This document shows, one piece after another, positions 307-12,670 of a DNA stretch of 64,000 nt (the stretch's first letter is position 1; each line of letters starts with the position of its first letter). This stretch comes from Xanthobacteraceae bacterium (lineage in GTDB: Bacteria > Pseudomonadota > Alphaproteobacteria > Rhizobiales > Xanthobacteraceae): contig JARLIY010000069.1 of assembly GCA_031291475.1 (NCBI GenBank), positions 1 through 64,000 on the forward strand. The letters run 5' to 3'. The notes beneath the pieces are model-generated. The model saw nothing but the letters and a program-made list of their open reading frames with translations. It was not told where the DNA came from and made no database searches. The position numbers and the translations under genes were made by a program.

Positions 307-669
307 CGACGAATGGCAACATTCTTCGGTGTGGCGCGGACCAAAGAACTTCGCGCCTTTCGGCGCTCCGCCTCCCTCGGCTTATTCGAGGATAACGAAA
401 CTTCTTCGTGGCTTCGTGGTGAGCAAAGCTCGGACGCATCCGCGCCGCGAGAACGATTTCGCTTTTTCACCTCTCCCCGCTAGTGGGGAGAGGTCGGCGC
501 GCGAAGCGCGACGGGTGAGGGGGCGTGGCCCCGATTCTGAGCGTAGCGGAATCGCCCCCTCACCCCTACCCTCTCCCCGCCTGCGGAGAGAGCGAGACCT
601 GCCGCGAGAATGGTTTTGTCGGCGGGCGCCTCCTATGTAGTGATTTAAGCCTATCGGGTTGGAGCGCCG
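307..669. other. non-coding stretch before the amine oxidase gene
   Basis: I see no convincing gene here. The right half is occupied by a palindromic repeat (471-596). A short GGAG at 661-664 precedes the ATG of the next gene at 670. Confidence 0.5.
471..596. repeat. GC-rich palindromic repeat (CTCTCCCC/GGGGAGAG family)
   Basis: A small hairpin CTCTCCCCGC-TAG-TGGGGAGAG opens the element (471-491). GTGAGGGGGCG (515-525) is matched by its reverse complement CGCCCCCTCAC (553-563), and a second CTCTCCCCGC...GCGGAGAGAG hairpin closes it. The architecture matches the copy inside the DNA ligase gene at 34530-34655. It looks like a dispersed non-autonomous element of the kind common between rhizobial genes. 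Confidence 0.75.
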
Positions 670-2289
670 ATGCGGGACGGCAGCGGAAGCGGGACAGCGG
701 TCAGCCGGCGCGATCTCCTGTCGCTGATCGGCACCGTCGCCGGCAGTGCCGCGATGTATCAGGCGACGGCGAGCCTCGGTTTCGCGGCGGATTCCGGTTA
801 CCGCGGGCCGATCGCGCTGTCCGGCGATGTCCGCGGCGCCTCGGTCCTGATCCTCGGCGCCGGTTTGGCCGGCATGACGGCGGCTTTTGAGCTGCGCAAG
901 GCGGGCTACAACGTTGCCGTCCTCGAATTCAATCTCCGCGCGGGCGGGCGCAACTGGACTTTGCGCGGCGGCGACACCTATACCGAGCTCGGCGGCTTCA
1001 CGCAGGCTTGCGAATTCGAAGCGGGGCAGTATTTCAATCCGGGGCCGTGGCGGATTCCCTATCATCACCGCGCGCTGCTCGATTACTGCAAACGCCTCAA
1101 CGTCGCGCTCGAGCCGTTCGTCGAGCTCAATCACAATGCGTATTTGCATGCCGCCGACGCGTTCGGCGGCCGCCCGCAGCGCATCCGCGAAATCAAAGCC
1201 GATTTTCAGGGACACGTTGCTGAATTGCTGGCCAAGACGACCGCGCAGGGCAAGCTCGATGAAGCCGTCTCAGTAGAGGATAAGGAGAGGCTGTTGCAGG
1301 CGCTGCGATCATGGGGCGCGCTGGATCAGGACTATGCTTACAAAAAGAACCTGATCTCCGCCCGTGTTCGCGGCTATGCCAAGGGTCCCGGCGGCGGGCT
1401 CGACGGCGGTGTCGGCGCGGCACCCGTCGCCGGCGAACCGATCGAGCTCGCGGACATCCTCAAATCCGAGCTTTGGGAATATCTGCGAAACTTTTCGCAG
1501 CTCGATTTCCAGACCACGTTGTTCCAGCCGACGGGCGGCATGGACATGATCGGGAAGGCGTTCGCCAACGAAGTCGGCGATCTCATCCGCTACGACGCCA
1601 AGGTGACCCGCATCGCCCAGGATGACGGAGGCGTCACCGTCACCTATGTGGACCCCAAGGCGCCCGCTTCTCCACCGCAGCTGGCGAAAGCCGACTGGTG
1701 CTTCTGCACCATTCCGCTTTCCATACTCAGTCAGATCCCGATCGATGTGGGGCCGCGCATGAAGGCGGCGATCGACGCGGTGCCTTACGCCTCGGCGGTC
1801 AAGATCGGCCTGCAATTCACGCGCCGGTTCTGGGAGGAGGACGAGGCGATCTACGGCGGCATCAGCTACACGGATCTGCCGATCCGGCAGATCGCCTATC
1901 CCAATTCCGGCCTCAACCGCCGCGGCCGCGGGGTGCTGCTCGGCGCTTACATCTTCGAGGGATCGAACGCTTACGAGTTCGCCGCGATGCCGCCCGCGGA
2001 ACGCGTCGCGCGCGCCGTGGCGCTCGGCGCGCAGGTTCACCCGCAATACCCGGCCGAGTTCGAGAATGGCGTCGCGGTAGCGTGGCAGCGCGTGCCGTTT
2101 TCGCTCGGCTGCGCGGGTTACTGGACCGAGAAAGCGAGAGCCGAGCATTACGGCGATTTGTGCCAGATCGACGGGCGGATCGTGCTCGCCGGCGAGCACG
2201 CCTCCAACCTGCCGGCGTGGCAGGAAGGCGCGATCCTCTCGTCGCTCGACGCGGTCACGCGCCTGCACCACCGTGTCGTCAAAACGTGA
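670..2289 (+). CDS. exported flavin monoamine/L-amino-acid oxidase-type dehydrogenase
   Basis: A 539-residue protein of the FAD amine-oxidase family, which oxidises an amine or alpha-amino group to the imine. The N-terminus carries a twin-arginine signal (SRRDLL at residues 12-17 followed by a hydrophobic stretch), so it should fold with FAD and be exported by Tat. The dinucleotide-binding motif GAGLAGM lies at about 63-69, followed by an acidic strand end (VAVLE). The C-terminal FAD contact region reads RIVLAGEHASNLPAWQEGA. The start is the ATG at 670, five bases after GGAG. The cytochrome c gene begins at its stop codon. That coupling suggests a dehydrogenase that passes electrons to cytochrome c, as NicA2 does with CycN, rather than to oxygen. 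The amine substrate cannot be read from sequence. Confidence 0.88.
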   Translation: MRDGSGSGTAVSRRDLLSLIGTVAGSAAMYQATASLGFAADSGYRGPIALSGDVRGASVLILGAGLAGMTAAFELRKAGYNVAVLEFNLRAGGRNWTLRGGDTYTELGGFTQACEFEAGQYFNPGPWRIPYHHRALLDYCKRLNVALEPFVELNHNAYLHAADAFGGRPQRIREIKADFQGHVAELLAKTTAQGKLDEAVSVEDKERLLQALRSWGALDQDYAYKKNLISARVRGYAKGPGGGLDGGVGAAPVAGEPIELADILKSELWEYLRNFSQLDFQTTLFQPTGGMDMIGKAFANEVGDLIRYDAKVTRIAQDDGGVTVTYVDPKAPASPPQLAKADWCFCTIPLSILSQIPIDVGPRMKAAIDAVPYASAVKIGLQFTRRFWEEDEAIYGGISYTDLPIRQIAYPNSGLNRRGRGVLLGAYIFEGSNAYEFAAMPPAERVARAVALGAQVHPQYPAEFENGVAVAWQRVPFSLGCAGYWTEKARAEHYGDLCQIDGRIVLAGEHASNLPAWQEGAILSSLDAVTRLHHRVVKT

Positions 2290-2297
2290 AGCCGACG

Positions 2298-2714
2298 ATG
2301 GCGCCGTGCCTGAAACACATGACCGTCGCCGCGCTGCTGGCGCTCGCCTCGCCGGCGACGGCGGCGGAAAACGCGGCGCCGCATCCGTCCGGGCCGCCTC
2401 TGAGCACCGGCTTCAAATTCACCGAAGACAACGGCGCGGATCTGTACACCGCAGTGTGTCAGGGCTGCCACATGCCGGACGGCAAAGGCGCGATCGGCGC
2501 CGGGGCCTATCCGCCGCTCGCTGGCGATCCCAATCTCGCGGCCGCCGGCAATCCGGTTTCCGTGGTGGTCAACGGACTGCGGGCGATGCCGCCGGTCGGC
2601 TTCATGATGAGCGACGAGCAGGTCGCCGCCGTGGTGAATTATGTGCGCACCCACTTCGGCAACAACTATCCGGATGCGGTCAAGCCTGAAGATGTGAAAG
2701 TCTTGCGACACTAA
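2298..2714 (+). CDS. exported class I c-type cytochrome
   Basis: A 138-residue protein with a Sec signal peptide (cleavage likely after ASPATAA, about residue 23) and one haem-binding CxxCH (C54, C57, H58 in CQGCH). The likely sixth ligand is the methionine in LRAMPPVGF. It is a small monohaem cytochrome of the type that accepts electrons from periplasmic dehydrogenases. The ATG at 2298 is used; a GTG at 2286 would overlap the preceding stop codon by four bases and is an equally good candidate start. Either way it is translationally close-coupled to the amine oxidase and is probably its electron acceptor. Confidence 0.9.
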   Translation: MAPCLKHMTVAALLALASPATAAENAAPHPSGPPLSTGFKFTEDNGADLYTAVCQGCHMPDGKGAIGAGAYPPLAGDPNLAAAGNPVSVVVNGLRAMPPVGFMMSDEQVAAVVNYVRTHFGNNYPDAVKPEDVKVLRH

Positions 2715-2787
2715 AACTTGCGGCGTTGAAAGCCCGTTTGCACAAACTGTTTGACGTGTGCACCTTTATTGGAGGAGATACACCTCA

Positions 2788-3582
2788 ATGACGCTCGGTC
2801 GCTCCAAATGGTTCGCGCCAAATCTGCTTGCGGCAAGCCTGTTGGCGTTAAGCCTGCTGGCGCCCAATCTTTACGCATCCGTCGCGCGCGCCGAAACGCT
2901 GCCGCTGCCGGGCAATCTGACCGATCTTAATTCCGCCGACGGCGAAAAGTATTTTCTCGAAAGCGGCGCGTTCGCGACTTATTTCGCGATCGCCGACAAT
3001 TTTGTGACGCAGAAGACGCTAGCCTATTGCGGCGTCGCCTCGATCGTCATGGTGCTCAACGCGGCCGGCTTGCCGGCGCCGACGACGCCGGAATATCACC
3101 CCTATCACGTCTTCACCCAGGACAATGTGCTCGACGAGCGCACCGAGACTATATTGCCGCAGGCGGTCCTCGCCCGGCAGGGCATGACGCTCGATCAGCT
3201 CGGCGGATTATTGGCGCTGCATCCGGTGACAGTCGAAGTTCACCATGCCGCCGATGGCGGACTCGACGCCTTCCGCGCCGCCGCGCGCGACTATCTTGCC
3301 GCCAAGGATCATTTTGTGGTCGTAAACTATCAGCGCAAGGCGATCGGCCAGCAGACCGGAGGCCATATCTCTCCGCTCGCGGCCTACGACGCGAAGGAGG
3401 ACCGGTTCCTCATCCTCGACGTGGCGCGCTACAAATATCCGCCGGTCTGGGTGAAGGCTTCCGATCTGTTCGACGCGATGAACACGGCCGACAGGGACAA
3501 CGACAACAAGACGCGCGGCTATGTGCTGATCGCCAAAAGCGGGGCCACGACCGGCACCACGACGCCGGTGCCCGTGCAGTGA
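2788..3582 (+). CDS. exported phytochelatin-synthase-like cysteine peptidase
   Basis: A 264-residue protein with a long leucine-rich Sec signal peptide (about residues 10-35, ending ASVARA). The mature part matches the catalytic domain of phytochelatin synthase (Clan CA papain-like fold). The triad is visible as C81 (AYCGVASIVMV), H193 (GGHISPLAAYD) and D211 (LILDVARYKYPPVWV), and the His-Asp spacing of 18 equals that of the plant enzyme. There is no Cys-rich C-terminal domain, as in the short prokaryotic homologues that mainly hydrolyse glutathione to gamma-Glu-Cys plus glycine. The ATG at 2788 is chosen over the GTG at 2758 because GGAGGAG (2772-2778) precedes it. The gene overlaps the GGT gene by four bases. 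Export of such an enzyme is unusual. Confidence 0.88.
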   Translation: MTLGRSKWFAPNLLAASLLALSLLAPNLYASVARAETLPLPGNLTDLNSADGEKYFLESGAFATYFAIADNFVTQKTLAYCGVASIVMVLNAAGLPAPTTPEYHPYHVFTQDNVLDERTETILPQAVLARQGMTLDQLGGLLALHPVTVEVHHAADGGLDAFRAAARDYLAAKDHFVVVNYQRKAIGQQTGGHISPLAAYDAKEDRFLILDVARYKYPPVWVKASDLFDAMNTADRDNDNKTRGYVLIAKSGATTGTTTPVPVQ

Positions 3583-5318
3583 CGGCACTGCGATCGAACG
3601 GTTTAATCTTGAAGTGGGCGTCGCTGGGGCTCGCCGGCGTTCTGGCGTTGCCGCTTTCGGCGCCGGGCGAGAGCCAGCCGGAACCGGAGAACGGCCGCGC
3701 GCCGGCAGTCACCGCCGCGCACGGCATGGTGGTGGCGCAGGAAGCGATCGCCGCGCGCGTCGGCGTCGATATTTTGCAGCAAGGCGGCAATGCGATCGAC
3801 GCGGCGGTCGCGGTCGGCTTCGCCATGGCCGTCACCTATCCGCGCGCCGGCAATATCGGCGGCGGCGGCTTCATGGTGATCCATCGCGCCGGCGGCGGCG
3901 ACACTACCATCGACTATCGCGAGACGGCGCCGGCGGCGATCGACAGCAAATCCTTCCTCGACGCGGTGGGCAACGCCGACCCGCAGAAATCGCGCGACTC
4001 CGCGCTCGCCATCGGCGTGCCGGGCACGGTCGCCGGGCTGGCGCTGGCCGAGGCGAAATACGGCTCTGGGCATTTTACGCTCGCCGACCTGATCAAGCCC
4101 GCAATCGCGCTCGCCCGCGACGGCATCGCCCTCGCCGACGACACGGCAGATTCGCTGCCCGTCGACAAGCCGCGGCTGGCGCGCTGGCCCTCCTCGGCAC
4201 AAATTTTTCTCAAAGCCGACAGCAGCGTGCTCGCTCCCGGCGATCGCCTGGTCCAGCCCGACCTCGCCGACACCTTGCAAGCCGTCGCTAGCGACGGGCC
4301 GTCCGCGTTCTATCAAGGCCCGATCGCGGAGAAACTCGCCGCCGGCGTTCAGGCGGCCGGCGGCGTGATGACCGCCGACGATCTCAAGAACTATCGCGCC
4401 ATCGAGCGCGCGCCAATCCGCGGCACCTATCGCGGCTATGAGATCGTCTCGATGCCGCCGCCGTCGTCGGGCGGCATCGCGCTGGTGGAAATGCTCAACA
4501 TCCTGGAAGGCTACGATCTGGCGCATGACGACGAGGCGCAGACGCTGTTTTTAATGATCGAGGCGATGAAGCGCGCTTATGCCGATCGTGCCTGGTTTCT
4601 CGGCGATCCCGACGTGGTGAAGATCCCGGTCGCGCGGCTGACCTCGAAGAGTTATGCCGCGACATGGCGCGCGACTATCGACCTGGCGCATGCGACGCCC
4701 GCGGCCGCGATCCGCGCCGGCGGCGAAGTCGGCGTGGAAGGCCGCAACACCACGCATTTCTCCGTCATCGACCGCTTCGGCAACGCCGTCTCCAATACCA
4801 CCACGCTCAATTTCAGCTATGGCGTCGGCCTGGTCGCGGCGGGGACCGGCGTTCTGCTCAACAATGAGCTCGACGATTTCGCCGCCAAGGCGGACGCGCC
4901 AAACGCTTACGGGCTTCTCGGCGACAAGGCCAATGCGCCCGGGCCGGGCAAGCGGCCGCTGTCGTCGATGACGCCAACCATCGTGCTCAAGGACGGCAAG
5001 GCTTATCTCGTCACCGGAACGCCAGGCGGCAGCCGCATCATCACCGCCGTCCTGCAGGTCGTGACCGACGTGATCGACCGCGGCATGGATATCGCGGGCG
5101 CGGTGTCAAAGCCGCGCCTGCACGATCAATGGAAGCCGGACCAGGTCCTCGCCGAGCCGGGGTTTCCGCCGGAGGTGATCGCTGCGCTGCAGGCGCGCGG
5201 CGACGACGTCGTCGTGCAAAAGCTGCCGACGTCGGCCAATTCGATCCTGGTCACGCCTGAAGGTTTTGTCGGCGCCGCCGATCCGCGCACCCGCGGCGCG
5301 CTGGCGGCGGGGTATTAA
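3579..5318 (+). CDS. ggt: gamma-glutamyltransferase, periplasmic
   Basis: A 579-residue Ntn hydrolase that cleaves the gamma-glutamyl bond of glutathione and its conjugates. The start is a GTG at 3579 that shares bases with the stop of the preceding gene (GTGA). It opens a signal peptide (LKWASLGLAGVLALPLSAPG). The autoprocessing and nucleophile site is the first threonine of TTHFSVID, residue 391, which separates large and small subunits. The substrate-loop sequence PSSGG and the C-terminal GTPGGSRIITAVLQV are family hallmarks. It is co-transcribed with the PCS-like peptidase; together they could remove both glycine and gamma-glutamate from glutathione outside the cytoplasm. Confidence 0.93.
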   Translation: MTALRSNGLILKWASLGLAGVLALPLSAPGESQPEPENGRAPAVTAAHGMVVAQEAIAARVGVDILQQGGNAIDAAVAVGFAMAVTYPRAGNIGGGGFMVIHRAGGGDTTIDYRETAPAAIDSKSFLDAVGNADPQKSRDSALAIGVPGTVAGLALAEAKYGSGHFTLADLIKPAIALARDGIALADDTADSLPVDKPRLARWPSSAQIFLKADSSVLAPGDRLVQPDLADTLQAVASDGPSAFYQGPIAEKLAAGVQAAGGVMTADDLKNYRAIERAPIRGTYRGYEIVSMPPPSSGGIALVEMLNILEGYDLAHDDEAQTLFLMIEAMKRAYADRAWFLGDPDVVKIPVARLTSKSYAATWRATIDLAHATPAAAIRAGGEVGVEGRNTTHFSVIDRFGNAVSNTTTLNFSYGVGLVAAGTGVLLNNELDDFAAKADAPNAYGLLGDKANAPGPGKRPLSSMTPTIVLKDGKAYLVTGTPGGSRIITAVLQVVTDVIDRGMDIAGAVSKPRLHDQWKPDQVLAEPGFPPEVIAALQARGDDVVVQKLPTSANSILVTPEGFVGAADPRTRGALAAGY

Positions 5319-6187
5319 GTTGCGGAGAGGCCGAGAAGCTTCACCGCATTTTCCTTGAGAATGAGGGGACGCACCTCGGGCTTGATGTCGAGCTTCTCGA
5401 AATCGCTGAGCCAGCGATCCGGCTTAATGACCGGCCAGTCGGAGCCGAACAGCACTTTGTGCTTGAGCAGCGAGTTGGCGTAGCGGACCAGGATCGGCGG
5501 AAAGTATTTCGGCGACCAGCCGGACAGGTCGATGTAAACATTGGGCTTGTGTTGCGCGACCGACAGCGCCTCCTCCTGCCACGGAAAAGACGGGTGGGCG
5601 AGAATGATCGGCATGTCGGGAAAGTCGACGGCGACGTCGTCGATGAACATCGGGTTGGAATATTTGAGCCGAATGCCGGCGCCGCCGCGCATGCCGGAGC
5701 CGACGCCGGTCTGCCCGGTATGGAACAGCGCCGGGAGCCTGGCTTCGGCGATCGCCTCGTAGAGGACGTAGGCGTTGCGGTCGTTGGGGAAAAATCCCTG
5801 CTGGGAGGGATGAAACTTGAAACCGCGAATGCCGAAGTCGCTGATCAAGCGGCGCGCCTCGCGGGCGCCGGCTTTGCCCTTGGCCGGATCGATGCTGGCG
5901 AACGGGATGAGGACGTCGCTGTTGGCCGCCGCCTTCTCCGCCACTTCCTCGTTCGAGTAGCGGCGGAAGCCCATTTCGCGCTCGGCATCGACCGGAAAGA
6001 TCACCGCGCCGATCTTGCGCGCGCGATAATAGGCCGCGGTCTCCTCGATGGTCGGGCGGTTGTTGGGTTGATTGAAGTAGACGGCCATCGCCGCCTGAAG
6101 CTCGTCGTAACCATCGTCGGGATGCGAGCCGCAAGGCTCCTCCGCATGGGTATGAACATCGATGGCCACCAACTCGTTGACGTTCAC
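5315..6187 (-). CDS. metal-dependent amidohydrolase (amidohydrolase 2 family)
   Basis: A 290-residue TIM-barrel hydrolase or decarboxylase of the ACMSD/resorcylate-decarboxylase type. The metal-binding HxH is at the N-terminus (IDVHTHAEEP). Further barrel motifs are LFHTGQTGVGSG, ILAHPSFPWQ and the terminal metal ligand region LFGSDWPVI. The start is the GTG at 6187, which has GGGAG eight bases upstream; the longer open frame upstream has no ribosome site. It converges on and overlaps the GGT 3' end by four bases, so the two transcripts are antisense at their ends. The substrate is unknown; cyclic acids or carboxylated aromatics are typical of the family. Confidence 0.85.
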   Translation of the reverse strand: MNVNELVAIDVHTHAEEPCGSHPDDGYDELQAAMAVYFNQPNNRPTIEETAAYYRARKIGAVIFPVDAEREMGFRRYSNEEVAEKAAANSDVLIPFASIDPAKGKAGAREARRLISDFGIRGFKFHPSQQGFFPNDRNAYVLYEAIAEARLPALFHTGQTGVGSGMRGGAGIRLKYSNPMFIDDVAVDFPDMPIILAHPSFPWQEEALSVAQHKPNVYIDLSGWSPKYFPPILVRYANSLLKHKVLFGSDWPVIKPDRWLSDFEKLDIKPEVRPLILKENAVKLLGLSAT

Positions 6188-6384
6188 GAAACACTCCCGG
6201 ATCGCGCTGACGTGCGCGCCATTGGAGCATATCGACGGAAAAGCGTATAGCGGGACATGGCCCACTTTGGGCAACTTCGCCGGCGGACACGCGCCGGCGG
6301 CGGGGCAAAACTCTGGATTGTTTCAAGCGCGCATGCGATCCTATCGGCATGCGAACAACAAATAAGCCGCAGGGAGGATCGATC

Positions 6385-7924: not shown

Positions 7925-8024
7925 CGTCATTCCGGGGCCGAGCAAAGCGAGGAGCCTGGAATCCATAATCACGATTCGTGGGTATGGATTCCGGACTTGC
8001 CGCTTCGCGGCAATCGGGAATGAC
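7925..8024. repeat. intergenic palindromic repeat (GTCATTCC family), possible bidirectional terminator
   Basis: GTCATTCC near 7926 is mirrored by GGAATGAC at 8017-8024. An inner arm, GGAATCCATA (7959-7968), is mirrored by TATGGATTCC (7983-7992). It lies between two convergent genes, where its hairpin could stop both transcripts. Confidence 0.7.
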
Positions 8025-8027
8025 CGA

Positions 8028-8820
8028 TCAGTTTGACAGTGCGCGCAAAGCGGCGAGCACGTCGTCCGGACGTTCGCTCATCAGCATGTGGCCGGCGCCT
8101 TCCAGCATTGTGAGGCGGCAATTGGCGATCGCCGCGGCGATGGCTTTGCCGCTCTTGGCCGGCGTCATCATGTCCCGGCTGCCGAGGATCACAACCGACG
8201 GCACGGTCACCTTGGCCGCGGCGGCGAGCGCCTCGCCATAGGCGTTGCAGGCGGAAAGATCGGCATAGATGACGCCCGGACGCGCGCGTTCCAGTAAACG
8301 CTCGCCGCCGCCGAGCATCCAAAGGCCGGGAACTTGCGAGCCGCCAAGCGTGGCGTGATAGCCCTCACCCCAAATGGCAATCATGTCGATCGCCGCGTGG
8401 TCGTTGGCTTTGGCGGCATTGAGGAGATCGTCCGATACCCGCATCGGCGCCGCGGTCGCGATCAGACCCAGCGCCGTGGACTTTCGCAGGCTGCCGCGCG
8501 GCGGTCTCCAGCGCGACGAGCGACCCCATCGAATGGCCGACAAGGCTTGCCGAGCGCAGGCCGGCCGCCTCGATCAGCGCCGCCGTCCAGTCGGCGAGCG
8601 CGGCGATGGACGACAGCGGCGCGCCGGCCGAGCGGCCGTGGCCGGGAAAATCGGGCGCCAGCACGCCGAACCCATGATACGCAAAGGCGCGCGCCAAGAG
8701 AGCCCACACCGTGTGGTCGAAGCCGGCGCCGTGCAGAAAAACCATCGCCGGCAGAGCCGGATCGAAATCGCGCCCGCCCGTCGCGGCGAATATCTCGCTG
8801 CCGTTGACGCGGAGCCGCAT
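8028..8820 (-). pseudogene. alpha/beta-fold hydrolase interrupted by one +1 frameshift
   Basis: The N-terminal part (from ATG at 8820) encodes MVFLHGAGFDHTVW, the oxyanion-loop motif HGAG, and the nucleophile elbow GHSMGSLVALETAARQPAKV. The C-terminal part, with ILGSRDMMTP (acid region) and EGAGHMLMSERP (histidine), is in another frame. The switch falls at GTGGAC, 8476-8481: removing one G at 8478-8479 restores a continuous protein of about 263 residues reading KVTALGLIATAAP. All catalytic elements survive on either side, so this is a recent mutation or a sequencing error. It is the last gene of a pair with the sulfhydrylase, four bases downstream of it. Confidence 0.85.
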
Positions 8821-8824
8821 CGCG

Positions 8825-10120
8825 TTACGCCTTTTGCGCCGCGCGCAACGCCTGGCCGAAATCGTCGATGATATCGCCGGCGGCTTCGAGCCCGACCGAA
8901 ACGCGAATGAGCTCCTCGCCGACTCCGGCCGCGGCCAAGGCGGCCGCGTCCATCTGCTGATGCGTGGTGCTTGCCGGGTGGATCACCAGGGTCTTGGCGT
9001 CGCCGACATTGGCGAGGTGGCTCGCGAGCCGCACCGCCTCGATGAATTTCCGCCCCGCCGCGCGACCGCCCTTGATGCCGAAAGAGACGATCGAGCCCGC
9101 GCCCTTCGGCAGCAAACGTTGCGCCAGCGCGTGATCGGGATGCGTGTCGAGCGACGGATGCAGCACCCAGTCGACCGCCGGATGCGCGCGCAGGAATGTG
9201 AGCACCTTGGCCGTATTCTCCATGTGGCGCTGCATGCGCAGTGCCAGCGTCTCCACGCCTTGCAGCAGATAAAACGCGTTGGTCGGCGACAGGCAGGCGC
9301 CGAAATCGCGCAAACCTTCCGCCCGCGCGCGCATGATGAAGGCGGCCGGACCGAACTCCTCGGCGAAGACGATGCCGTGATAGCCGGCATAGGGCTCGGT
9401 GAGCGTCGGGAATTTACCGGCTGCCTGCCAGTCGAAATGGCCGCCATCGACAACGACGCCACCGATGGCGACGCCGTGGCCGCCGAGCCATTTGGTGACC
9501 GAATGCATGACGATGTCGGCGCCGAGCGCGAGTGGGCGGCTCAGATAGGGCGTGGCAAACGTATTGTCGATGAGGAGCGGAATGCCGGCGGCATGGGCGA
9601 TGTCGGCGACCTTGGGGATGTCGAGCACTTCCAGGCCCGGATTGCCGATGGTCTCGGCGATGATGAGCCGGGTGTTGCGCCCGATGGCGGCGCGGAAGCC
9701 ATCGAGATCGCGCGGCTTGACGAAACTCGTGGTCACGCCGAAGCGCGGCAGTGTGTGAGTGAGGAGATTGATGCTGCCGCCATAGAGCGAGGCGGACGCG
9801 ACGATATGGTCGTCGGCGCCAAGGAGCGTGGCGATGGCGAGATGCATCGCCGCCATGCCGCTCGCCGTGCATACGGCGCCGACGCCCTCTTCGAGCGCCG
9901 CCAGCCGCTCTTCCAGCACCGCAGTCGTCGGATTGGAAATGCGCGTGTAGATGTGGCCAGCACGTTCCAGATTGAACAGACCGGCGGCATGATCGGCGTC
10001 GTCGAACATATATGACGTGGTCTGATAGATCGGCACCGCCCGCGAGCGCGTCACCGGATCGGGATGCTGCCCGGCATGCAGGCTCAAAGTCTCGAAGGCC
10101 GGTGGTTTCGGAGTGGGCAT
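8825..10120 (-). CDS. O-acetylhomoserine/O-succinylhomoserine sulfhydrylase (Cys/Met metabolism PLP enzyme)
   Basis: A 431-residue PLP enzyme of the cystathionine gamma-synthase superfamily, MetY-like, forming homocysteine directly from sulfide and an acyl-homoserine. It opens with [14 protein letters not shown]. The phosphate-binding and ring-stacking motifs are [20 protein letters not shown] and GMAAM; the lysine Schiff-base region is [12 protein letters not shown]. The start ATG at 10120 begins at the conserved N-terminus; an upstream in-frame extension is not supported. It lies downstream of the SulP transporter gene on the same strand, giving a local sulfur-assimilation pair. MetZ is the main alternative name. 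Confidence 0.9.
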
Positions 10121-10324
10121 GTTTTCGGCAGCGCAGCTACAGATCGGTGGAAGCGATGACGTTCGCCTTAAACGGATCTCGTTGAACGGCTCACACAACA
10201 CCGCACGGTGCGAAAGCGGCGCGCCTCGAGCAGCAGGGCGAAGACCAAGGCCACCTTTCTTCGCTTATCGGATATTGAAACGCAAACAGGAAGGGCGGAA
10301 GTGAAGAAAGTCCTCCCAATTCGA
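10121..10324 (-). other. 204-base leader between SulP and sulfhydrylase genes
   Basis: No gene is seen. It is long enough to hold the promoter and an untranslated leader for the sulfhydrylase. I looked for a SAM-II-type riboswitch, which is common upstream of such genes in this class, and found only loose resemblance. Confidence 0.35.
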
Positions 10325-12550
10325 TCACCTTGCCGGTGCGGCGCGAGGCGTCCGGTTGGCAAGGAGGATCCGCAGCATCGCGTTCATCGATATAATGCGC
10401 TGCGCCATCAGTCGTGCCGTCATCAGGTGAAACTCCGCGGCAACGGCGGGCTGCTCCCGGTTCAGGCGAAGAAGGGATTCGCCGCTGATAACACCGATGG
10501 TCGCGTCCGTATCCGCCATCAGCGAGGCCGAACGTTTCCTGTCGGTATAAAAAGCCATTTCGCCCGTTAGGGTGCCAGGCAAAAATTTCCGCAAGCGAAC
10601 CGATTGTCCGCCGCCGAGATCGAGATGCGCCGAAAGAGTACCGCGCACCAGCAAGATGGTGTCGTAGTCTTCGTCGCCCTGGTGGAACACGGTGCCACCT
10701 GCCCGTATGTCACGTATGGTGAAATAGGGTAACAAGGCCATCGCCTTGTCGCGTTCCTCTATGACGGAAACCAAGGCATCCTCCGCGCTGATCGGGGCGC
10801 TGGTTGGGTCATCGTCCCAACCGGACTGCTTGAGCAGGCGGTCTTCAACCCATTCGGCAGCCATCGCCGTCGTCGCGAAGTACAGCGACAAATCCTTGTC
10901 GAGGATATTCGCGGTTTGCAGGTCTTTGGCGGCGTTGCTGCTCAAGCCCGAATACAGCAAACAAATATCCTGCGCTTTTGCAAAAGTTTTCAGCTTGCGC
11001 AGTGCGAAATGCGCTGCGGCGTCCAACCCATCAACATTCGCAAACCCCAGAATTACAAATTCGATTTTTTGCGTGCTCGCGCCGATGCGCTTGCGGATAT
11101 GCTCCAGAAGTCCGATCGCCGACCCGAAGAAAATAAATCCCTGGATTTCGAAAGTGAGAGCCCGCTCCCCGACCTCACGCAAAATGCTGTCGGCGCGGGG
11201 GGAGCGTTCGACGTCGCTGCGAAAATTGCGCCCGGAAAGTTCGACCTTTATGACGTTCAACCTGCTGTATTTAACCTGGAAGTCGAGGGCAGCGATGAGA
11301 ATGCCGGCTGCGACCCCTGGTAGAAATCCGACCAGCGCGATGATCCCGGTGATCAAGAGGATAAGAACGTAGTCGCTACGCCCAAGGCGATGGCGGGCGC
11401 GGATCAGCCATTCGTCCATCAGGCCGAACGCGAACACGACAAGAAGTGTGCCCACCATGACCTTGGGCACTAAGCCCAGGAGACTAAGACCTGCCGCCCC
11501 GAGCGCCAGACTGAAAAGAGGGCGCAGGAGCGGCATCAAGCGGCTGGACGCTCCGAGGCGAAGATAAGACAATGAGGGTCCAGTCAGGGTGAAGGCCGGC
11601 AAGCCGCCGACCAGCGCAGCCGCCAGATTCGCTAGACCATGCGCCCGGAATTCGTGGTTCGGCTCCAGCTCCGTTTCGGCACCGATTTCCAGGGCCGTCG
11701 TGGCGACCGACGCGCCGATCGTACAGACCAGAATCAGGCCGCCGATTTTTCCCAGTCCATCTAGGACAACACTCCAGTCAATCTTCGTAAAGGAGATCCA
11801 TTTGAACGCGTCGAAGACGCCGCCTTCGGGCAGGGACCGGAAGACGAAACCGCTCTCCCGCAGGGAGACGAGCGAAACGGACAATATGCTGGCCACAATG
11901 TAAAATGAGATCACGATGCCGATCAGCGCGATCGGCAGAAACAAGACATGCCGAAAGCGGTTCATTCCCCAATACAAAAGGCTGCCGGCGATCAGGGATG
12001 GTAGCCAGCGCAAGGCTGTTTGCCCGGAGAAAAGTTGGGGGAGGCTTTCCAAGCTCGGCGTGATCCCTGACTGAAAGCGGATCGTGGCGATCAAGACCAG
12101 CACGCCAACTCCAGCCAGGAAGCCGCCGATTACCGGATAGGGAACGAGTTGGGTGTATCGTCCAAATCTCAAGACGCCAAGGAGGAGGAGAGCCAATCCG
12201 AAGGAAGCGGTAGATAGAACAATGACGGCGAACATCGTCGAGATGGCCGCCCCCTCATCGAGGATGCTCATGCTGGTGAGGCCGCTCGCGAAGGTTGCTA
12301 GAATCGCCGCTGGCTGATCCTGGGCACCGCTGAGATTGCAGTAAAAGCGGCTTAGCAAGCCGACCACTAACGCTGAAACAGCGGTTCCAGCCAGGAAGGT
12401 CACGAAGGCCAGCGGCACGACCTTTGCCAAGGGCCCGGAAAAAATCAGGCCGGCGAATGCTACTGTTCCGAGAACAGTGATGACGCTGGACAGCATCGCC
12501 AAGAATAGGTCCGCCAGAACCTGATGCGCTGTTAATTGTTTGATCCGCAT
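10325..12550 (-). CDS. SulP-family anion transporter with STAS and cyclic-nucleotide-binding domains
   Basis: A 741-residue membrane protein in three parts. About residues 10-422 are a polytopic SulP core, with the substrate-pocket stretch GAQDQPAA, GGFLAGVG and several glycine-rich helices. About 460-575 is a cytoplasmic STAS domain. About 605-725 is a cNMP-binding domain with a phosphate-cassette-like GEMAFYTDRKRSASL. The STAS switch motif reads GLDAAAHFAL where active family members often have D-S-S or D-S-T. The start is the ATG at 12550; a GTG at 12604 would add 18 residues and neither has a strong ribosome site. Likely substrates are sulfate, bicarbonate or another anion, with import possibly gated by a nucleotide. 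Confidence 0.87.
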   Translation of the reverse strand: MRIKQLTAHQVLADLFLAMLSSVITVLGTVAFAGLIFSGPLAKVVPLAFVTFLAGTAVSALVVGLLSRFYCNLSGAQDQPAAILATFASGLTSMSILDEGAAISTMFAVIVLSTASFGLALLLLGVLRFGRYTQLVPYPVIGGFLAGVGVLVLIATIRFQSGITPSLESLPQLFSGQTALRWLPSLIAGSLLYWGMNRFRHVLFLPIALIGIVISFYIVASILSVSLVSLRESGFVFRSLPEGGVFDAFKWISFTKIDWSVVLDGLGKIGGLILVCTIGASVATTALEIGAETELEPNHEFRAHGLANLAAALVGGLPAFTLTGPSLSYLRLGASSRLMPLLRPLFSLALGAAGLSLLGLVPKVMVGTLLVVFAFGLMDEWLIRARHRLGRSDYVLILLITGIIALVGFLPGVAAGILIAALDFQVKYSRLNVIKVELSGRNFRSDVERSPRADSILREVGERALTFEIQGFIFFGSAIGLLEHIRKRIGASTQKIEFVILGFANVDGLDAAAHFALRKLKTFAKAQDICLLYSGLSSNAAKDLQTANILDKDLSLYFATTAMAAEWVEDRLLKQSGWDDDPTSAPISAEDALVSVIEERDKAMALLPYFTIRDIRAGGTVFHQGDEDYDTILLVRGTLSAHLDLGGGQSVRLRKFLPGTLTGEMAFYTDRKRSASLMADTDATIGVISGESLLRLNREQPAVAAEFHLMTARLMAQRIISMNAMLRILLANRTPRAAPAR

Positions 12551-12670
12551 CGCCTCGACAATGCCCAATAGCGCAGCCAGTCGGCAGCCCCCGAAACCGG
12601 GCACAATTTATCACTTACGTAGATTGCATGGACGAAAATCGGCGAAGCAAAAAAAAGCTTCATGTTGTCG

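What the first reader, a model, noticed from the sequence alone, without database searches (positions are those of the whole stretch)
670..5318. Exported amine dehydrogenase, cytochrome c, PCS-like peptidase and GGT in one run: a possible periplasmic glutathione-conjugate degradation pathway
Seen directly: four consecutive same-strand genes, all with export signals (Tat, Sec, Sec, Sec), arranged as two overlapping pairs. The amine oxidase is followed at its stop codon by a CxxCH cytochrome. The PCS-like gene (triad C81/H193/D211) overlaps GGT (Thr391). Known: short prokaryotic PCS homologues remove glycine from glutathione, plant PCS also deglycylates glutathione S-conjugates, GGT removes gamma-glutamate, and the flavin amine oxidase NicA2 uses a cytochrome c as electron acceptor. 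Inference: the peptidases reduce glutathione or its conjugates to cysteine (conjugates), and the flavoenzyme deaminates a resulting amine with electrons entering the respiratory chain. I know of no described system that combines these four. A GST gene lies 1 kb downstream.
Basis: partly seen in the sequence, partly recalled or inferred. Interest (0 to 1): 0.8.

Follow-up and report, generated by a model that had tools for sequence, protein, structure and literature searches.

The report
Exported amino-acid dehydrogenase beside glutathione peptidases
A bacterium carries, next to its own glutathione-cutting enzyme, an acquired set of exported proteins that probably cut glutathione-like peptides outside the inner membrane and pass electrons from a freed amino acid to respiration; half of the set is a known gene cluster, the combination is rare and untested.

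Summary
The four genes are real, at the stated coordinates and overlaps. The reading changes. The "amine dehydrogenase" is an L-amino-acid-oxidase-type flavoenzyme; with its cytochrome c it is two thirds of a described cluster, lao-cccA-ridA, needed in Gluconacetobacter diazotrophicus to make IAA from tryptophan. In 39 of 39 relatives (51% identity or more) the cytochrome gene follows directly; in 18 a RidA gene follows too, but not here. The PCS-like protein is an exported Alr0975-type peptidase. GGT is the genus's own gene, found without the other three in all 11 same-genus neighbourhoods read. So AO-cytC-PCS is a cassette placed against a resident GGT. The pairing recurs: one Methylocystaceae genome has AO-cytC-RidA-PCS-GGT in a row, one Hyphomicrobiales genome AO-cytC-PCS; the linked genes do not form one clade. 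Yet 0 of 32 AO-selected loci show PCS, and PCS was not found in 13 of 13 AO genomes tested. Best account: periplasmic breakdown of glutathione-type peptides with respiratory deamination of a released amino acid. S-conjugates as substrate remain speculation.

The parts
670..2289 (+). AO: exported (twin-arginine leader by eye) FAD L-amino-acid oxidoreductase, LAAO type, lao-like
   Evidence: Pfam Amino_oxidase; best PDB hit R. opacus LAAO 2JAE, E 7e-86; R128, K378, W517 invariant in 57 aligned rows, window included; RR motif in 32 of 32 relatives examined
2286..2714 (+). cytC: exported class I cytochrome c (CQGCH), cccA-like, proposed electron acceptor of AO
   Evidence: Pfam Cytochrome_CBB3/Cytochrom_C; cytochrome gene directly after AO in 39 of 39 relatives at 51% identity or more
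2788..3582 (+). PCS: exported short phytochelatin-synthase-like cysteine peptidase (Alr0975/NsPCS type), catalytic C81/H193/D211
   Evidence: Pfam Phytochelatin; PDB Alr0975 E 1e-70 over residues 36-251; triad positions
3579..5318 (+). GGT: exported gamma-glutamyltranspeptidase, genus-resident gene whose start overlaps the PCS stop
   Evidence: Pfam and TIGR00066 above cut-off; nested among same-genus GGTs that lack PCS; NTTH at 390-393
5315..6190 (-). amidohydrolase (Amidohydro_2), part of the genus-resident neighbourhood, not of the cassette
   Evidence: Pfam; near GGT in L024, L026, L027
6349..7026 (+). glutathione S-transferase, genus-resident neighbour of GGT, not of the cassette
   Evidence: Pfam; near GGT in L024, L025, L026

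Best explanation
An acquired cassette (AO, cytC, PCS) sits directly upstream of the genome's resident GGT, and the four exported products probably work on one class of compounds in the periplasm. PCS removes glycine from glutathione-type peptides to give gamma-glutamylcysteine (inferred from Alr0975). GGT removes the gamma-glutamyl group to give glutamate and cysteine (inferred from the family). AO oxidises the alpha-amine of one or more of the freed L-amino acids to an imino acid and hands the electrons to the adjacent cytochrome c, hence to a terminal oxidase, instead of making H2O2 (inferred from the Tat-plus-adjacent-cytochrome rule published for NicA2-type enzymes and from the lao-cccA-ridA cluster). 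The imine hydrolyses to keto acid and ammonia, aided elsewhere by a RidA that is not in this run. Shown here: families, conserved residues, gene order, recurrence and history. Not shown: any activity, the actual substrate, co-transcription.
For: Four families and catalytic residues. Cytochrome gene after AO in 39 of 39 relatives; RidA directly after it in 18 of 39 (in L235 and L240 the contig ends after the cytochrome); the 17 such RidAs whose N-termini were read have a hydrophobic leader by eye, in L049 only upstream of the annotated start. Oxidase subunit genes stand near AO-cytC in Dinoroseobacter and Roseinatronobacter. All four genes plus RidA in a row in L080; AO-cytC-PCS in L065. One clade is rejected for PCS-linked AOs (p-AU 0.0005) and for AO-linked PCSs (p-AU 0.006). 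The window GGT is nested in same-genus GGTs, apart from all other PCS-linked GGTs in the tree, so PCS-GGT pairing arose here separately; 17 of 80 PCS loci have GGT within 1 kb. Of 41 PCS genomes searched, 7 carry AO at 58% identity or more (L065 and L080 among them), against 7 of 396 in the order sample without the own genome; without L065 and L080, 5 of 39, Fisher p 0.002. In G. diazotrophicus the lao-cccA-ridA cluster is needed for IAA made from the free amino acid tryptophan (PMC5053998, abstract and passages).
Against: AO usually occurs without PCS: 0 of 32 AO-selected loci show it, and PCS was not found in 13 of 13 AO genomes tested (no control genome rang there, but the same model rings in the own genome). 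In the order sample (397 genomes) the own genome is the only one with both. PCS is usually without AO (78 of 80 loci; 33 of 41 genomes at E 1e-60). A Pfam tally of 99 ORFs around proteobacterial PCS loci showed no other neighbour fitting the pathway among the 25 of 58 families displayed. One old linkage with many losses is not excluded by the trees. The described lao cluster was tested with tryptophan. Own genome: no RidA in the run, and none of its 7 RidA-family genes has an obvious leader.
Confidence: 0.5

Rival explanations
1. Two unrelated exported modules lie side by side by chance of transfer: a lao-cccA-type aromatic L-amino-acid dehydrogenase (tryptophan to indole-pyruvate, as proposed for G. 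diazotrophicus) and a PCS-GGT glutathione-salvage pair. They share the periplasm but no metabolite.
For: AO-cytC stands without PCS in 32 of 32 AO-selected loci; the genetically tested relative that I found concerns Trp; several relatives sit on plasmids, some with transposase genes within about 5 kb.
Against: AO-PCS adjacency in three places with trees rejecting one clade; higher AO frequency in PCS genomes.
Confidence: 0.35
2. A periplasmic route for glutathione S-conjugates: PCS then GGT strip the conjugate to a cysteine S-conjugate, which AO deaminates.
For: A PCS catalytic domain can deglycinate GSH S-conjugates (S. mansoni enzyme, PMC3561135, passages); AO is of amino-acid type; a GST lies 1 kb downstream.
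Against: The GST lies near GGT in same-genus genomes without PCS; nothing here points to conjugates rather than GSH; no exporter gene is in the run.
Confidence: 0.12
3. PCS makes metal-binding phytochelatins in the periplasm and GGT recycles glutathione; AO is unrelated.
For: Pfam family Phytochelatin; PMC3561135 cites PC2 synthesis by the Nostoc enzyme (passages).
Against: Only the catalytic domain is present, as in Alr0975; Nostoc NsPCS converts GSH to gamma-Glu-Cys and glycine (PMC12065762, passages).
Confidence: 0.03

Closest known systems
lao-cccA-ridA cluster of Gluconacetobacter diazotrophicus PAL5 (Rodrigues et al. 2016, PMC5053998)
   Same: L-amino-acid oxidase with a predicted Tat signal, clustered with a cytochrome c gene; residues encoded by the published qPCR primers (YPSHGYF, QVIHPNY, 43 apart; cccA NYVRSH) resemble the window proteins (YPNSGL, QVHPQY, 45 apart; NYVRTH)
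   Different: ridA is missing from the run; PCS and GGT are added; substrate in the window unknown. The full G. diazotrophicus sequences were not on hand to align.
NicA2/Pnao-CycN and other cytochrome-c-using flavoprotein amine dehydrogenases (Akram et al. 2025, PMC12224317)
   Same: Tat signal plus adjacent cytochrome c gene, reported there as good predictors of dehydrogenase function
   Different: Window AO is closest to L-amino-acid oxidases; the term 'L-amino acid' does not occur in that paper's main text
Alr0975 / NsPCS of Nostoc sp. PCC 7120
   Same: Catalytic domain only, same triad, alignable over residues 36-251
   Different: Beside AO-cytC here; activity not tested
Rhodococcus opacus L-amino-acid oxidase (2JAE)
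   Same: Sequence kinship over residues 50-537; Arg128 and Trp517 aligned
   Different: Window AO has a Tat-type leader and a cytochrome partner
Gamma-glutamyltranspeptidase (PF01019, TIGR00066)
   Same: Full-length match, NTTH motif, exported
   Different: Start codon overlaps a PCS gene; resident gene of the genus

Membership tests
lao-cccA-ridA cluster | Tat-exported LAAO-type flavoenzyme | tested here: met
   (leader by motif, not by predictor)
lao-cccA-ridA cluster | cytochrome c gene directly downstream on the same strand | tested here: met
lao-cccA-ridA cluster | ridA gene next to the cytochrome gene | tested here: not met
   73-base gap then PCS; no leader-bearing RidA seen by eye among the 7 RidA-family genes of the own genome; 21 of 39 relatives also show none directly downstream, 2 of them at a contig end
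lao-cccA-ridA cluster | role in tryptophan to indole-3-pyruvate conversion | not testable with these tools
   needs purified enzyme or mutant
NicA2-type cytochrome-c-using amine dehydrogenase | Tat signal and adjacent cytochrome c gene | tested here: met
NicA2-type cytochrome-c-using amine dehydrogenase | amine substrate, sequence kinship to NicA2 | tested here: not met
   best PDB hit is an L-amino-acid oxidase (293 bits); NicA2 is not among the best 60 of 102 hits shown; carboxylate Arg conserved
NicA2-type cytochrome-c-using amine dehydrogenase | slow with O2, fast with its own cytochrome | not testable with these tools
   the conserved Lys378 does not decide it (PMC12224317 discussion)
Alr0975-type PCS-like glutathione deglycinase | Cys-His-Asp triad, catalytic domain only | tested here: met
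Alr0975-type PCS-like glutathione deglycinase | GSH to gamma-Glu-Cys plus glycine | not testable with these tools
   enzyme assay needed
Gamma-glutamyltranspeptidase | PF01019/TIGR00066 above cut-off with the catalytic Thr motif | tested here: met

The most novel reading that the evidence does not exclude
A periplasmic glutathione-respiring line, assembled more than once from two modules (PCS-GGT peptidases and an LAAO-type amino-acid dehydrogenase with its own cytochrome c and, elsewhere, an exported RidA), that turns extracellular gamma-glutamyl peptides or their S-conjugates into keto acids, ammonia and electrons for the respiratory chain.
Probability: 0.3. Interest if true: 0.75.

Novelty: new variant of a known kind. 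Interest (0 to 1): 0.52.

Why it matters
If true, it would give short bacterial phytochelatin-synthase-like proteins, whose role is unclear, a pathway; extend cytochrome-c-coupled flavoprotein dehydrogenases from amines to L-amino acids; and show an extracytoplasmic counterpart of glutathione or mercapturate breakdown that saves the electrons. Each step is an ordinary enzyme assay.

Tried and rejected
Amine-dehydrogenase reading: dropped. Novelty of the flavoenzyme-cytochrome pair: dropped after PMC5053998. Conserved operon in the genus: rejected. Flanking repeats of a mobile element around the cassette: only weak matches; AO begins 669 bases from the contig start, so the left border may be missing. 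Neighbour tally around proteobacterial PCS loci: 105 ORFs were picked greedily by length in 26 loci and 99 were scanned (I dropped six, among them all three of L080 and one of L065, so 25 loci remained); of the 25 of 58 families displayed, MFS_1 came three times, GGT, LysR domains and Peripla_BP_6 twice, the rest once. One search read a wrong strand or frame of L004, whose PCS I never read out. Searches read the wrong strand for the own RidA genes; redone. No structure prediction, fold search or RNA-family search was run.

Papers: ten searches, seen as listings. Searches looked for PCS together with GGT, gene clusters or conjugates, and their listings (20 of 66, 12 of 495, 1 of 1 shown) held no paper whose title or abstract start describes the combination; no paper was searched for all four genes at once. 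The library holds open-licence PMC papers only. Passages only were seen of PMC11314372, PMC10805672, PMC4433059, PMC3561135, PMC12065762 and PMC9537276; abstract and passages of PMC5053998; abstract, passages and discussion of PMC12224317. No paper was read whole. The roles of the active-site Arg and of E. coli GGT Thr391 are recalled; the statement on the Lys was read in PMC12224317.
Full report
Observation. The four genes are present as described: AO 670-2289, cytC 2286-2714, PCS 2788-3582, GGT 3579-5318, all on the + strand, in two overlapping pairs with 73 bases between. Pfam places each in the stated family above cut-off. The PCS triad is C81/H193/D211 and the GGT motif NTTH begins at 390. 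A consensus scan found no promoter-like or terminator-like site in the gap, which neither shows nor excludes one transcript. Export leaders were judged by eye.

The flavoenzyme. Its nearest solved structure by sequence is Rhodococcus opacus L-amino-acid oxidase (2JAE, E 7e-86). R128, aligned to the Arg that holds the substrate carboxylate in that enzyme (role recalled), is invariant in all 57 aligned rows (41 of 51% identity or more, window included, and 16 more distant; some genes occur twice under different locus ids), as are K378 and W517. The substrate is therefore most likely an L-amino acid. An RR motif is present near the N-terminus of 32 of 32 related AOs examined.

The AO-cytC(-RidA) module. 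Besides the window I looked at 39 loci with AO at 51% identity or more: 27, 5 (L218-L222), 7. The cytochrome gene follows AO in 39 of 39. A RidA gene follows the cytochrome directly in 18 of 39 (16, L220, L238); in L235 and L240 the contig ends just after the cytochrome, so 18 is a lower bound. I read 17 of those 18 N-termini: all have a hydrophobic Sec- or lipoprotein-like leader, in L049 only if translation begins upstream of the annotated start. Of 8 loci with AO at 36-42% identity, 2 have a cytochrome match next to AO (L192, L193). This module has been described: in G. diazotrophicus PAL5 two Tn5 mutants in lao made no IAA from tryptophan, and lao clusters with cccA and ridA, whose transcripts also fell; the paper calls the roles of the cytochrome and RidA a hypothesis and cites a periplasmic LAAO-RidA complex of Chlamydomonas (PMC5053998; abstract and passages). 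Residues decoded from the published primers resemble the window proteins. RidA of Salmonella hydrolyses imines made by a venom L-amino-acid oxidase (PMC4433059, passages). [quoted passage not shown] abstract, passages and discussion). In Dinoroseobacter and Roseinatronobacter, cytochrome oxidase subunit genes stand near the pair.

History of the run. PCS was found in 0 of 19 other genomes of the same genus (3 of 61 relatives match in all, the own genome among them); several of these 19 are 60-90% complete. A GGT of 70-82% identity, complete or partial, is present in 17 of those 19. I took the neighbourhood of GGT in 11 same-genus and 9 same-family genomes (1 to 5 kb upstream, as contigs allowed); none of the 20 has AO, cytC or PCS near it. 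Amidohydrolase, GST or further downstream genes of the window lie near GGT in 4 of the 11 (L024-L027). Full-length but distant AOs (37-39%) exist elsewhere in 4 of the 60 relatives. In a quick tree of 42 GGTs the window GGT is nested among same-genus GGTs (support 95-100) and apart from all other PCS-linked GGTs. Hence AO-cytC-PCS is most simply an insertion against a resident GGT. The nearest AO (79%) is in a same-family genome in which no PCS was found; the nearest PCS (78%) is in Methylocapsa, whose genome has an AO-cytC pair at another place.

Recurrence. A pattern-limited scan of genome contigs gave 82 PCS loci, of which 80 are held. Two of the 80 have AO-cytC beside PCS: L065 (AO-cytC-PCS) and L080, a Methylocystaceae genome with AO-cytC-RidA-PCS-GGT in one row. 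The three PCS-linked AOs are not one clade (p-AU 0.0005, 37 rows), nor are the three AO-linked PCSs (p-AU 0.006, 81 rows); one old linkage followed by many losses is not excluded. GGT lies within 1 kb of PCS in 17 of 80 loci, 14 of them cyanobacterial. I searched the genomes of 41 of the 80 PCS loci for AO, leaving out cyanobacteria and some others: 8 have AO at E 1e-60, 7 of them at 58% identity or more, L065 and L080 included, against 7 of 396 in the order sample without the own genome; Fisher p 8e-5, or 0.002 with L065 and L080 left out (5 of 39). The samples differ in make-up and relatedness, so these p values are only indicative. In the family of the Methylocapsa genome, 12 of 199 genomes have AO, 11 at 55% or more; four known PCS carriers in that sample all have it (chance 5e-6 if drawn at random), but the centre was itself chosen as a carrier of both, and the other genomes there were not tested for PCS.

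Against a fixed pathway. 0 of 32 AO-selected loci (25 besides L065 and L080; 7, two of them cut off after the cytochrome) show PCS or GGT beside AO. PCS was not found in 13 of 13 AO genomes tested. In the order sample (397 genomes each) 26 have PCS and 8 have AO, and the own genome is the only one with both. In the class sample 14 of 385 have AO at E 1e-100, 6 of them besides the own genome at 54% or more. The two modules stand apart in most genomes; the joined form is rare. The own genome's seven RidA-family genes show no obvious leader.

Mechanism. Most likely: PCS takes glycine off glutathione-type peptides, GGT takes off glutamate, AO oxidises one of the freed amino acids and the cytochrome carries the electrons to an oxidase. 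Families, residues and linkage are shown; activities, substrate and co-expression are inferred. Nostoc NsPCS converts GSH to gamma-Glu-Cys and glycine (PMC12065762, passages), and S. mansoni PCS deglycinates a GSH S-conjugate (PMC3561135, passages); so a conjugate route is possible but has no support specific to this locus.

Verdict. A new variant of a known kind: a lao-cccA module joined to PCS and GGT.

Noticed in passing
L045, L049, L050, L080, L176, L178-L182, L188-L190, L199, L201, L202, L220: RidA-family proteins with Sec- or lipoprotein-like leaders (by eye) directly after the cytochrome gene: probably exported imine deaminases. Searches led only to the G. diazotrophicus ridA and, cited there, a periplasmic LAAO-RidA complex of Chlamydomonas.
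   Followed up: partly
window 8825-12604: A Cys/Met-metabolism PLP enzyme and a sulfate permease lie on the other strand beyond GST; the PLP enzyme is also near GGT in L025, so a sulfur block may be linked to the resident GGT.
   Followed up: no
window 7969-8820: An alpha/beta-hydrolase-like gene on the minus strand that cannot be read through in one frame (ORFs 8365-8820 and 8028-8543 in different frames); possibly a broken gene or a sequencing error.
   Followed up: no
window 470-592: Imperfect repeat (CCTCTCCCCGC...GGGGAGAG, two copies 100 bases apart) in the noncoding stretch before AO, near the contig start.
   Followed up: no
window 3585-3605: What looks like the resident GGT's original ATG (GCGATGAACGG in L025) reads GCGATCGAACGG in the window, so GGT translation may now depend on the GTG that overlaps PCS; seen by eye.
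   Followed up: no
L069, L075, L077, L086 and other Nostocales loci: PCS and GGT are neighbours in 14 cyanobacterial loci, either in tandem or divergent, often 290 bases apart.
   Followed up: partly
L051 and L200: Cytochrome oxidase subunit genes near the AO-cytC pair on Dinoroseobacter and Roseinatronobacter plasmids.
   Followed up: no
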